Source of the DNA: Rubrobacter xylanophilus
Lineage (GTDB): Bacteria; Actinomycetota; Rubrobacteria; Rubrobacterales; Rubrobacteraceae
Length of the DNA stretch: 64,000 bases
Assembly: GCF_007164525.1 (NCBI RefSeq)
Contig: NZ_AP019791.1
Coordinates: 2,095,501-2,159,500 of the forward strand
Direction: 5' to 3'
In this document: piece after piece, positions 23,949 to 28,220 of the stretch
Layout of the letters: each line of letters begins with the position of its first letter
Numbering within the stretch: position 1 is the stretch's first letter
The notes under the pieces: model-generated
Databases searched by the model: none
The model's input: the letters and a program-made list of their open reading frames with translations, nothing else
Told to the model about the DNA's origin: nothing
Program-made: the position numbers and the translations under genes

Positions 23949-24701
23949 ATGCTAAAGATAGAGAATTTGCGCGCCGAGGTAGAGGGCAAGGAGATTCTGA
24001 AGGGTCTGACGCTCGAGGTGGGCAAGGGCGAGATCCACGCCATCATGGGACCCAACGGCTCGGGCAAGAGCACGCTGGCCAACGTGCTCATGGGGCATCC
24101 GCGCTACGAGGTCACCGGTGGTTCGGTGACCTTCGAGGGCGAGGATGTGCTGGAGCTCGAGCCCGACGAGCGGGCCAAACTCGGGATGTTCCTCGCGTTT
24201 CAGTACCCGAGCGAGGTACCCGGGGTCTCCGTGGCCAACTTTCTGCGGACGGCGGTCAACTCCGTGCGGGAGCAGGAGATCCCGCCGATGGAGATGTACA
24301 AGCTCCTGCAGGAGAAGATGCGTCTGATGGACATGGACCCCGGCTTCGCCGAGAGGTATCTCAACGAGGGCTTCTCCGGCGGGGAGAAGAAGCGCAACGA
24401 GATCCTGCAGCTGCTCGTGCTCCAGCCCAAGCTCGCCATCCTGGACGAGACCGACTCTGGGCTGGACATCGACGCGCTGCAGATCGTCGCCCGGGGCGTC
24501 AACCAGATGCGCGGTCCCGAGTTCTCCGCGGTGGTCATCACCCACTACCAGCGGATACTCCGCTACATCGAGCCGGACTTCGTGCACGTCATGCTCGACG
24601 GGCGGATCGTGACCTCGGGCGGCAAGGAGCTCGCCGAGGAGCTCGAGTCCAAGGGCTACGACTGGGTCCGCCAGGAGTTCGGGGCGGGGACCCAGAGCTA
24701 A
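23949..24701 (+). CDS. sufC: Fe-S cluster assembly ATPase SufC
   Basis: The 250-residue ABC-type ATPase has Walker [17 protein letters not shown] near residue 35, the SufC-specific [11 protein letters not shown] signature near 142 and Walker [17 protein letters not shown] near 165. It forms a soluble complex with SufB and SufD that builds iron-sulfur clusters and is not a transporter subunit. It is the first gene of a six-gene suf operon (plus one remnant). Confidence 0.97.
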
Positions 24702-24712
24702 AGGAGGGAAGG

Positions 24713-26125
24713 ATGCCTGCCGACAAGACCATCCAGGAGCTCGGTCTCGAGGAGTACAAGTACGGGTTCAAGGACCCCGAGGAGTACTTCTTCAAGACCC
24801 CCAGGAAGGGGCTCGACGAGGAGATCGTGACCATGATCTCCCTGCACAAGAAGGAGCCCGAGTGGATGCTCGAGTTCCGGCTGAACGCGCTGAAGGCGTT
24901 CCAGGAAAAGCCCGTACCCACCTGGGGGGCCGATCTCTCCGAGCTGGACTTCGACGACATCTACTACTACATCAAGCCGGTCGAGAACCAGGGGCGTTCG
25001 TGGGACGAGGTTCCCGAGAGCATCAAGAAGACCTTCGACCGGCTCGGCATCCCGCAGGCCGAGCGGGAGATCCTGGCCGGCGTCGGTGCCCAGTACGAGT
25101 CCGAGGTCGTCTACCACAACCTCAAGGAGGAGTGGGAGAAGCAGGGCGTCGTCTTCCTGGACATGGACGGCGGTCTCAGGGAGCACGAGGAGCTGGTGCG
25201 CGAGTACTTCGGCACCGTCATCCCGCCCGACGACAACAAGTTCGCCGCGCTCAACAGCGCCGTCTGGAGCGGCGGTTCGTTCGTCTACGTGCCGCCGGGG
25301 GTGCACGTGGACATACCGCTGCAGGCCTACTTCCGCATCAACGCGGAGAACATGGGCCAGTTCGAGCGGACGCTCATCATCGCCGACGAGGGTTCCTACG
25401 TGCACTACATCGAGGGCTGCACCGCCCCGACCTACACCACCAACTCGCTGCACTCGGCGGTGGTGGAGCTCATCGCCAAGCCGAACGCCCGCATCCGTTA
25501 CTCGACCATCCAGAACTGGTCGCACAACACCTACAACCTGGTGACCAAGCGCGGGGTGGCCTACGAGAACGCCACCATCGAGTGGGTGGACGGCAACCTG
25601 GGCTCCAAGGTCACCATGAAGTACCCGGCGGTCTACCTGATGGGCGAGGGGGCGCGCGGCGAGATCCTCTCGGTCGCCTACGCCGGGGACGGGCAGCACC
25701 AGGACGCGGGCGGCAAGGTGGTGCACGTCGCGCCCAACACCTCCTCGCTGATCACCTCCAAGTCCATCTCCAAGGGGACCGGCAGGGCCACCTACCGCGG
25801 CCTGTTGAAGGTGCACGAGGGGGCCGTGAACTCCAAGAGCCGGGTGGAGTGCGACGCGTTGCTGCTGGACGAGCAGGCGCGCACCGACACCTACCCGTAC
25901 ATCGAGATCGAGGAGAAGAAGGTCAACACCGAGCACGAGGCCACCGTCTCCAAGGTCGGTGAGGAACAGCTCTTCTACCTCATGAGCCGCGGGCTCTCCG
26001 AGGAGGAGGCCATGGCGATGGTGGTCAACGGCTTCATCGAGCCGATCGCCAAGGAGCTGCCCCTCGAGTACGCGATCGAGCTGAACCGCCTGATCCAGCT
26101 GGAGATGGAGGGCTCGGTCGGGTAG
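24713..26125 (+). CDS. sufB: Fe-S cluster assembly scaffold SufB
   Basis: The 470-residue protein has SufB landmarks: [11 protein letters not shown] at the start, the beta-helix core with YSTIQNWS and NLVTKRG, and a C-terminal [25 protein letters not shown]. It is the scaffold on which SufBC2D assembles the cluster from SufU-delivered sulfur. AAAGGAGGG precedes ATG 24713, eleven bases past sufC. Confidence 0.97.
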
Positions 26126-26267
26126 GCTCTCTCCGGAGCCCCTGGGTCTCGGGGCGGAAGCTCACCGACGGACGGGGCGGGTCCTCCAGAGCCGGGAGGG
26201 GCTCGCCCCGTTTCCGGGAGAGCGGGTTTTCGCAGAGAGCTGTAGGACGCTGAAGCTGGTACGGCAG

Positions 26268-26501
26268 ATGTTCCCGACGAAGACCCTTCTGGAGACCGAT
26301 GGTTCGGAACACGCCCGGCAGGCAGCCCGGACGGCGGCGAGAGCCGGGCGCGGGGTTCATCGTGGGCGGCAGCCGGGGCCTGGGGGCTTGCGGCGGGCCC
26401 TGATGGGCAGCGTCTCCGAGAGCGTGGTGCGACACGCGCACCGCCCGGTGCTGGTGGTGCGCGGGGACACGGAAGGCATGGAAGGAGAAGGTGATAGATG
26501 A
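26268..26501 (+). pseudogene. Remnant of a UspA-type universal stress protein inside the suf operon
   Basis: The 77-codon frame begins like a universal stress protein (MFPTKTLLETDGSEHARQAARTA) and ends like one (GLRRALMGSVSESVVRHAHRPVLVVRG), but about 70 central residues are missing. Between them, the next frame reads GAGFIVGGSRGLG, the start of the ATP-binding motif. One G is lacking from a G-run (near 26382-26386), which shifts it out of frame with the rest. So it carries both a deletion and a frameshift. Its last four bases overlap the sufD start, and it may still couple sufD translation. Confidence 0.75.
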
Positions 26502-27859
26502 GCACGAACGGCGTGCCGGGGGCACTGAGGCGCAAGGGAATAGGGGTCGAGGCGGTAAAGGCGCTCGCCGCGTTCAAGGAAGAGCCGGGCTGGCTGCGGG
26601 AGAAGCGCCTTGCCGCCTGGCGAACCTTCGAGGAGATCCCCATGCCCACGATGCGCGACGAGGCGTGGCGCTACACCGACGTCTCGGACGTGCGCTTCGA
26701 GGAGTACGTGCCGTACGCACCGAGCCCCGACGTCGAGCGCGAGGGGGACCTCCCGGACGCCGTGCAGCGCCTCATAAAGGAGGGTGAGGAGAACTCGGCG
26801 CTGCTGGTGCAGCACAACTCCGAGACGACCTACACCCGGATAGACGAGGAGCTCCGGGCGAAGGGCGTCGTCTTCACGGACCTGCACACCGCCCTAAGGG
26901 AGCACGAGGAGCTGGTGCGCGAGAGGCTCTTCAGGCTCGTGCCGGAGGACTACGACAAATTCGCCGCGCTCTCGGCGGCGGCCTTCTCCGGCGGGTCGTT
27001 CCTCTACGTGCCGCGGGGCGTGGAGGTGGAGGTCCCGATCCAGAGCTACCGCTGGCTGGACGTGGCCGGCTCGATCATGCCGCGGACCCTGGTGATCATC
27101 GAGGAGGGAGCCTCGGTCACCTACATCGACGAGTACGCCTCCGATGACGGCGAGGAGCCGGCCCTCTCCAACGGCGCGGTCGAGCTCTTTGTGGGCCAGG
27201 GAGCGCGCCTGCAGTACGTCTCGCTGCAGAACTGGGCGCGCAACGTCGTCCACTTCAACACCATCCGCAGCCAGGCGGAGAAGGATGCCACCATAAACAG
27301 CCTGGTGGTCTCCTTCGGGGCCCAGCTCTCCCGGACCAACGTGGAGGCCGGGCTCACCGCCCCCGGCAGCGACTCAGAGATGCTCGGGCTGTACTTCGCC
27401 GACGAGGACCAGCTCATCGACCACCACACCCTCCAGGACCACATCGCCCCGCAGGCCCACTCCGACCTCCTGTACAAGGGTGCCCTCAGGGACGAGTCGC
27501 TCACCGTCTTCAGCGGGCTCATCCGTGTCGAGCCCGGCGCGCAGAAGACCGACGCCTACCAGACCAACCGCAACCTGATCCTGGGTACCGACGAGGCGAT
27601 GGCCGTCTCCCTGCCGAACCTGGAGATCATGGCCGACGACGTGAAGTGCTCCCACGGTGCGACCACCGGTCAGGTGGACGACCTGGAGCTCTTCTACCTG
27701 ATGAGCCGCGGGATCCCGCGCGTCGAGGCGGAGAAGCTGGTGGTCTTCGGCTTCTTCGGGGAGGTGACGAGCCGGATCCCGCTCAAAGGCCTCAGGGCGA
27801 AGCTGGACCGGGCGATCGAGGAGAAGATCGGGCTGGGCTTCGAGGAGCGCGTAGCCTAG
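26498..27859 (+). CDS. sufD: Fe-S cluster assembly protein SufD
   Basis: The 453-residue SufB paralogue has PMPTMRDEAWRYTDVSDVRF near residue 50, a central beta-helix, the KTDAYQTNRNLIL segment and [19 protein letters not shown] near 385. It partners SufB and SufC and helps iron entry. The family histidine is in SHGATTGQ. ATG 26498 follows GGAGAAGG and overlaps the stop of the UspA remnant. Confidence 0.96.
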   Translation: MSTNGVPGALRRKGIGVEAVKALAAFKEEPGWLREKRLAAWRTFEEIPMPTMRDEAWRYTDVSDVRFEEYVPYAPSPDVEREGDLPDAVQRLIKEGEENSALLVQHNSETTYTRIDEELRAKGVVFTDLHTALREHEELVRERLFRLVPEDYDKFAALSAAAFSGGSFLYVPRGVEVEVPIQSYRWLDVAGSIMPRTLVIIEEGASVTYIDEYASDDGEEPALSNGAVELFVGQGARLQYVSLQNWARNVVHFNTIRSQAEKDATINSLVVSFGAQLSRTNVEAGLTAPGSDSEMLGLYFADEDQLIDHHTLQDHIAPQAHSDLLYKGALRDESLTVFSGLIRVEPGAQKTDAYQTNRNLILGTDEAMAVSLPNLEIMADDVKCSHGATTGQVDDLELFYLMSRGIPRVEAEKLVVFGFFGEVTSRIPLKGLRAKLDRAIEEKIGLGFEERVA

Positions 27860-27860
27860 G

Positions 27861-28220
27861 ATGGCCGAGTTCCACAAGATAGCCCGCGTCGACGAGGTTC
27901 CCCCCGGCGAGGTCAAGCAGTACATCGTCGAGGAACGTCCGGTGGCGCTGTGCAACGTGGGTGGCGAGCTGTACGCCTTCGAGGACATCTGCACCCACCA
28001 GTACGCCCACCTGAGCGAGGGCAAGCTGGAGGACGGCCGGATCCGGTGCCCCCTCCACGGGGCGGCCTTCGACGTGAGGACCGGCGAGGCGAAGAGCCTT
28101 CCCGCGGTCAAACCGGTCCCCACCCACACGGTCCGCGTCGAGGACGGCCACGTCTACGTGGCCCTGAACCCGGAGCGGGTGAAGGTCGCGAGAAGAAGGG
28201 GTCGCGGCAGGAGGAGGTAG
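27861..28220 (+). CDS. Rieske-type [2Fe-2S] ferredoxin
   Basis: The 119-residue protein has the Rieske site C-x-H-x16-C-x2-H: CTHQYAHLSEG and RCPLHGAAFD near residues 42 and 62. It is of the dioxygenase-ferredoxin type and ends in a very basic tail (KVARRRGRGRRR). It starts one base after the sufD stop. Such a gene often sits in actinobacterial and thermophile suf operons, and may feed electrons to cluster assembly, though its role is unproven. Confidence 0.92.
   Translation: MAEFHKIARVDEVPPGEVKQYIVEERPVALCNVGGELYAFEDICTHQYAHLSEGKLEDGRIRCPLHGAAFDVRTGEAKSLPAVKPVPTHTVRVEDGHVYVALNPERVKVARRRGRGRRR

What the first reader, a model, noticed from the sequence alone, without database searches (positions are those of the whole stretch)
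26268..26501. Scrambled universal stress protein gene inside the suf operon
The frame starts and ends as UspA, with about 70 residues deleted and the remaining ATP-motif piece in another frame because one G is missing. Total length stays open and overlaps sufD by four bases, which suggests it is kept as a translation lead-in for sufD.
Basis: seen in the sequence. Interest (0 to 1): 0.5.

Follow-up and report, generated by a model that had tools for sequence, protein, structure and literature searches.

The report
Decaying stress-protein gene inside suf operon
Between two iron-sulfur assembly genes of a hot-spring bacterium lies the wreck of a universal stress protein gene that its closest relatives still carry whole; it looks like ordinary gene decay rather than a part kept to help translate the next gene.

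Summary
The window lies in a Rubrobacter genome of 3,022,875 bp, the size published for R. xylanophilus AA3-22. ORF 26268-26501 (77 aa) is the remnant of a universal stress protein (USP) gene between sufB and sufD. Two sisters (G001, same size as DSM 9941; MAG locus L019) carry the gene intact at this place (151 and 148 aa from the matching ATG). Each ends in the same ATGA overlap with sufD. Against them the window lacks 221 nt and, about 44 nt further on, one more base: net 222 nt, 74 codons. The overlap is therefore inherited.

The proposed role as a translation lead-in for sufD is not supported. On the window's branch the remnant changes faster than sufD and more often at amino-acid-changing sites (12 N, 8 S against 13 N, 40 S). 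Its own Shine-Dalgarno has decayed; sufD's is kept and its start is not predicted to be hidden. In 22 of 29 distinct sufB-sufD gaps no gene lies in between. Random pairs of such deletions keep the original stop in 33% of trials.

Best reading: a broken, dispensable operon passenger. In passing: a conserved hairpin after sufB, and a second, unrelated small gene at this site in other Rubrobacteraceae.

The parts
23949..24701 (+). sufC (ABC ATPase of the SUF system)
   Evidence: PF00005; ORF; the name sufC rests on place and recall
24713..26125 (+). sufB
   Evidence: PF01458 E 3.8e-90; 99.6% identical to G001 SufB
26165..26217 (+). GC-rich hairpin after sufB, in a similar place across Rubrobacteraceae gaps; the run of T after it is weak in this lineage
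   Evidence: not listed by the terminator scan
26248..26267 (+). former Shine-Dalgarno region of the USP gene; GGAGG of both sisters reads TGAAG here
   Evidence: predicted pairing with anti-SD -5.3 against -9.5 (G001) and -9.3 (L019) kcal/mol
26268..26501 (+). USP remnant ORF, 77 aa; 5' piece 26268-26340 and 3' piece from about 26387 in the original frame, middle piece out of frame
   Evidence: intact orthologues L064:5361-5816 (-) and L019
26340..26341 (+). junction of the 221-nt deletion (ambiguous by a few bases)
26381..26387 (+). place of the one-base deletion (several nearly equivalent positions)
26478..26497 (+). sufD ribosome-binding region; its last 18 nt are identical in G001; it also forms the end of the remnant ORF
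26498..27859 (+). sufD, start overlaps the remnant stop by ATGA
   Evidence: PF01458 E 1.3e-84
27861..28220 (+). Rieske-type ferredoxin domain protein
   Evidence: PF00355
28227..29453 (+). probable sufS (cysteine desulfurase), named from its sequence and place by recall
   Evidence: ORF; family not searched here

Best explanation
The ORF is a pseudogene in progress. An intact USP gene stood between sufB and sufD in the common ancestor of this strain, G001 and L019, ending in an ATGA overlap with sufD (shown by the relatives). On this strain's own branch a 221-nt deletion removed the middle of the gene and a one-base deletion hit nearby, in unknown order (shown). The remnant collected amino-acid-changing substitutions and lost the ribosome-binding site at its ATG (shown by comparison). 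sufD kept its own Shine-Dalgarno and a start that is not hidden, so it needs no upstream reading frame (predicted, not measured). The frame is still open mostly by chance and because stop codons are rare in such GC-rich DNA (inferred). The loss was tolerable because the genome holds 12 other strong USP domain matches (counted; redundancy of function is inferred).
For: Intact 151-aa USP at the same place in G001 and an intact orthologue in L019, both with ATGA overlap. SufD tree: window and G001 are sisters (97/86), joined with L019 at 100/100, so the intact state is ancestral and the loss is on the window branch. Remnant substitutions on the window branch 20 of 225 sites (12 N, 8 S; random expectation 73% N) against sufD 53 of 1359 (13 N, 40 S): Fisher p 0.006 for N:S, p 0.003 for rate; leaving out four junction-near changes (9 N, 7 S) p 0.03. 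Changes hit the first strand (I6T, A9E) and C133R. USP Shine-Dalgarno decayed, sufD's kept at -9.4 kcal/mol, same as both sisters. sufD start opening energy 2.1 kcal/mol, lowest of 29, and below the median in 6 of 6 settings. Random deletion pairs keep the stop in 33% of 20,000 trials. 12 further USP domain matches at E 4e-16 or better in the genome, 18 matches in all at E <= 1, the remnant included.
Against: The frame is open to the original stop and the 4-base overlap is intact. N:S of 12:8 is lower in N than the random 73%, though not significantly (binomial P 0.15). Only three sequences polarise the changes and only one genome of this species is held. An in-frame TTG at 26388 has a predicted anti-SD pairing of -8.4 and an ATG at 26478 one of -5.7, so translation of the last part from an internal start is possible. 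The anti-SD energies discriminate weakly: 5% of 600 random 20-mers of the window reach -9.7, so sufD's own -9.4 is not beyond that level. sufD's start is not robustly the most open: ranks 1, 1, 1, 2, 6 and 13 of 29 over six settings, and in the longest one (120+60 nt) it is less open than both sisters.
Confidence: 0.85

Rival explanations
1. One reading: the remnant is maintained as an upstream reading frame that feeds terminating ribosomes to sufD through the ATGA overlap (termination-reinitiation).
For: Overlaps of 4 nt are among the commonest arrangements of neighbouring genes and go with coupling, and in E. coli the last 15 nt of an upstream gene sufficed for coupling in menD-menH (PMC10666635; abstract and one Results section read). 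The frame reaches the original stop. Internal in-frame starts exist, TTG 26388 with -8.4 kcal/mol.
Against: The Shine-Dalgarno at the remnant's ATG has decayed, sufD's is kept and not hidden; 22 of 29 distinct gaps have no gene between sufB and sufD; the overlap is inherited. Of the other two frames after the junction one ends at 26403, but the other stays open to 26494, three bases before the sufD ATG, so the kept frame is not the only one leading up to sufD.
Confidence: 0.1
2. The 77-aa product is a new short functional protein.
For: Open frame; residues 37-65 still match the C-terminal part of a Usp domain.
Against: The other three USPs found at this place are full length. Substitutions near random proportions, including core positions. 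Decayed ribosome site.
Confidence: 0.03
3. The one-base deletion is a sequencing or assembly error.
For: It lies in a G-rich run; only one genome is held.
Against: The published assembly of the same length used Nanopore plus deep Illumina with Pilon polishing (PMC6706694). The 221-nt deletion would remain and the gene would still be broken.
Confidence: 0.04

Closest known systems
Universal stress protein family (Pfam PF00582, UspA)
   Same: Both ends of the frame align to intact USPs; family match over the curated cut-off
   Different: 74 codons net missing, middle piece out of frame, nucleotide-binding loop broken
Ordinary bacterial pseudogenes left inside operons
   Same: Intact orthologue at the same place in sisters, indels, relaxed substitutions, decayed ribosome site
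   Different: Net loss is a multiple of three, so no premature stop
Translationally coupled gene pairs with 4-nt overlap (termination-reinitiation)
   Same: ATGA overlap with sufD
   Different: Overlap inherited; downstream gene has its own site that is not hidden; the original upstream initiation site decayed

Membership tests
Universal stress protein (PF00582) | Sequence match above Pfam's curated score | tested here: met
   38.5 bits against 24
Universal stress protein (PF00582) | Full-length domain of about 140 residues | tested here: not met
   77 aa; best stretch covers profile 113-141 of 141, two stretches in all; 221 + 1 nt missing
Universal stress protein (PF00582) | ATP-binding loop G-2x-G-9x-G(S/T) (motif recalled, from no call) | tested here: not met
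   Present in G001 (GSRGLGGLRRALMGS); the first glycines are read out of frame in the window
Pseudogene | Intact orthologue at the same place in close relatives | tested here: met
   G001 and L019
Pseudogene | Relaxed selection after the break | tested here: met
   12 N, 8 S against sufD 13 N, 40 S on the same branch, p 0.006; small numbers
Pseudogene | No functional product | not testable with these tools
   Needs ribosome profiling or proteomics
Translational coupling to sufD | Short overlap of stop and start | tested here: met
   ATGA at 26498-26501, inherited
Translational coupling to sufD | Upstream frame has a working start | tested here: inconclusive
   At the original ATG GGAGG of the sisters reads TGAAG, -5.3 against -9.5/-9.3 kcal/mol; but an in-frame TTG at 26388 scores -8.4; predictions only, spacing not weighed
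Translational coupling to sufD | Downstream output depends on upstream translation | not testable with these tools
   Needs a reporter

The most novel reading that the evidence does not exclude
In this lineage sufD was once translated by coupling to an inserted USP gene, and when that gene broke, sufD went back to starting on its own: the sister species would show the coupled and this strain the uncoupled state at one locus. More widely, the sufB-sufD gap of Rubrobacteraceae would be a recurrent docking place for small genes behind a conserved attenuator-like hairpin that sets SufCB against the downstream genes.
Probability: 0.2. Interest if true: 0.35.

Novelty: new member of a known kind. 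Interest (0 to 1): 0.13.

Why it matters
It matters little by itself: a clean snapshot of gene decay inside a suf operon, with the intact state in two sisters and the neighbour gene as an internal control. It is a caution that an open frame and a tidy 4-base overlap are not evidence of function when the overlap is inherited from an intact gene.

Tried and rejected
Hypothesis that the remnant is conserved as a short protein: rejected; the three other USPs found at this place are full length and substitutions are relaxed. Hypothesis that net-in-frame loss shows selection: rejected, 33% by chance. Hypothesis that sufD's start is hidden and needs an upstream ribosome: not supported ('most open' is not robust, rank 13 of 29 in one of six settings; 'below the median' holds in all six).

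One origin of the USP at this place (G009 together with the xylanophilus group): a 32-row tree joined them at 96/89, but a 48-row tree with further USPs of the family (28 loci, at most one per genome) did not (2% of bootstraps; the AU test does not reject one clade, p 0.338). Left open. Earlier tree attempts are discarded: one search read many rows on the wrong strand; one search kept one nonsense row (L114). Rows dropped: L098 and L119 (stops from a wrong start); 7 of 39 rows; 17 of those 39, where rows with a stop were cut there (L126 to 38% of columns) and L125, L141 fell out as duplicates.

MAFFT placed the 5' end of the remnant wrongly around the long gap; the junction was taken from the ungapped breakpoint scan of the same call. 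The pattern search for the hairpin in G000 and G001 (11 and 45 strand matches, controls 8 and 34) showed that such GC-rich palindromes are common in these genomes; its pattern did not match the window's own suf hairpin. The terminator scan did not list that hairpin either. Rfam at gathering scores found nothing in the window.

Paper searches, listings only unless said: Rubrobacter xylanophilus genome; one paper then read; suf operon with universal stress protein, sufB, sufD: two E. coli expression papers listed; translational coupling and pseudogenes; one paper then read in part; suf operon with terminator and stem-loop: one Caulobacter paper; SUF in Actinobacteria: three papers; operon pseudogenes: two papers. 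No title or abstract start listed there speaks of this locus; that is not a claim that it is not in print.

Not included in the gap comparison: L034 and L089 (no sufB upstream in the DNA held) and the matches for which no locus was given (G014, G021, G017, G004, G008, second copy of G062).

Full report
What is there. The window carries a suf operon: sufC 23949-24701, sufB 24713-26125, sufD 26498-27859, a Rieske protein 27861-28220 and a probable sufS. Between sufB and sufD lies the ORF 26268-26501, 77 aa, which matches Pfam Usp at 38.5 bits. The genome has 3,022,875 bases in one contig. That is the length published for Rubrobacter xylanophilus AA3-22, with 86.7% ANI to DSM 9941 of 3,225,748 bp (PMC6706694). 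The nearest held genome, G001, has 3,225,748 bp.

Relatives. G001 has an intact 151-aa USP gene between sufB and sufD, and its stop overlaps the sufD start as ATGA. The MAG locus L019 has one too: 154 aa as listed, 148 aa from the ATG that matches, same overlap. A more distant genome, G009 (locus L084), has a 147-aa USP there that ends 47 nt before sufD without overlap. Of 45 gap records, 29 were distinct. Searching those 29 with the G001 USP gave clear matches in four: the window, G001, L019 and L084. Three others (L033, L068, L090) hold a different ORF of about 98 aa there. The remaining 22 are 84-150 nt long and hold no recognisable gene.

How it broke. Against the intact gene the window lacks one block of 221 nt and, 41-46 nt further on, one base. 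The sum is 222 nt, 74 codons. The remnant therefore starts and stops in the old frame, and the middle piece, which holds the first part of the nucleotide-binding loop, is read out of frame. The SufD tree of the 29 rows puts the window and G001 together (97/86) and joins them with L019 at 100/100, so the intact state is ancestral to these three and the loss belongs to the window's branch.

Is it kept for a purpose? Four tests speak against it. First, substitutions on the window's branch: 20 of 225 remnant sites (12 N, 8 S) against 53 of 1359 in sufD (13 N, 40 S); p 0.006 for N:S, 0.003 for rate, 0.03 for N:S without the four changes next to the junction. Random change would give 73% N, and 12 of 20 does not differ from that (P 0.15). 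Second, the USP Shine-Dalgarno GGAGG of both sisters reads TGAAG here, and the predicted pairing falls from -9.5 and -9.3 to -5.3 kcal/mol, while sufD keeps -9.4. These energies discriminate weakly: 5% of 600 random 20-mers reach -9.7, and an internal in-frame TTG at 26388 scores -8.4. Third, the sufD start is not hidden: opening energy 2.1 kcal/mol, lowest of 29. Over six settings it ranks 1, 1, 1, 2, 6 and 13 of 29, always below the median, but not always more open than its sisters. Fourth, of 20,000 random pairs of a 150-300 nt deletion and a one-base deletion in the G001 gene, 33% keep the original stop. Of the two other frames after the junction one ends at 26403 and the other at 26494, three bases before sufD, so that frame too leads up to sufD.

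What speaks for coupling. Overlaps of 4 nt are among the commonest arrangements of neighbouring genes and go with coupled translation, and in E. coli the last 15 nt of an upstream gene were enough for termination-reinitiation (PMC10666635, abstract and one Results section). In the sisters, where the USP is whole, sufD may well be coupled to it. In the window this could persist only if the remnant, or its end from an internal start, is translated. It is not excluded.

Origin of the inserted gene. Among the listed matches elsewhere in the family the best-scoring one is 66% identical to the G001 gene (G023) and none is above 67%. Whether the USP of G009 at this place shares one origin with that of the xylanophilus group is unresolved.

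Verdict. An ordinary pseudogene, well documented by its relatives.

Noticed in passing
window 26165-26217; first 110-130 nt of 29 distinct sufB-sufD gaps: A GC-rich hairpin follows sufB in a similar place in the Rubrobacteraceae gaps. In an alignment of 19 of the 29 gaps 95% of cells pair (0 of 500 shuffles as high), 4 of 12 pairs have changes on both sides (19 of 500 shuffles as high) and 3 never vary; further pair types are not in excess (95 of 500). As the script cut it, 12 of 29 have 4 or more T in the next 8 bases; in several others the T run was taken into the stem. The run is weak in the four gaps with a USP or its remnant. L068 has a different hairpin, and in L030 and L077 the script picked another. 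The terminator scan of the window did not list it. It may be a partial terminator or an mRNA end guard inside the operon.
   Followed up: partly
L033:4608-4907, and the sufB-sufD gaps of L068 and L090: A family of about 98-aa proteins without Pfam match sits between sufB and sufD in three genomes whose nearest rows in the SufD tree lack it; 5 of 39 family genomes have a relative at E <= 0.001, in two of them on contigs other than the sufD one. The gap looks like a recurrent place for small genes.
   Followed up: partly
L084:1010-1453: USP of 147 aa between sufB and sufD in a more distant genome, without overlap with sufD; same or separate insertion unresolved.
   Followed up: partly
window 26478-26501: In the window, but not in G001 or L019, an in-frame ATG opens a 7-codon frame that ends in the ATGA overlap; weak predicted Shine-Dalgarno (-5.7).
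   Followed up: no
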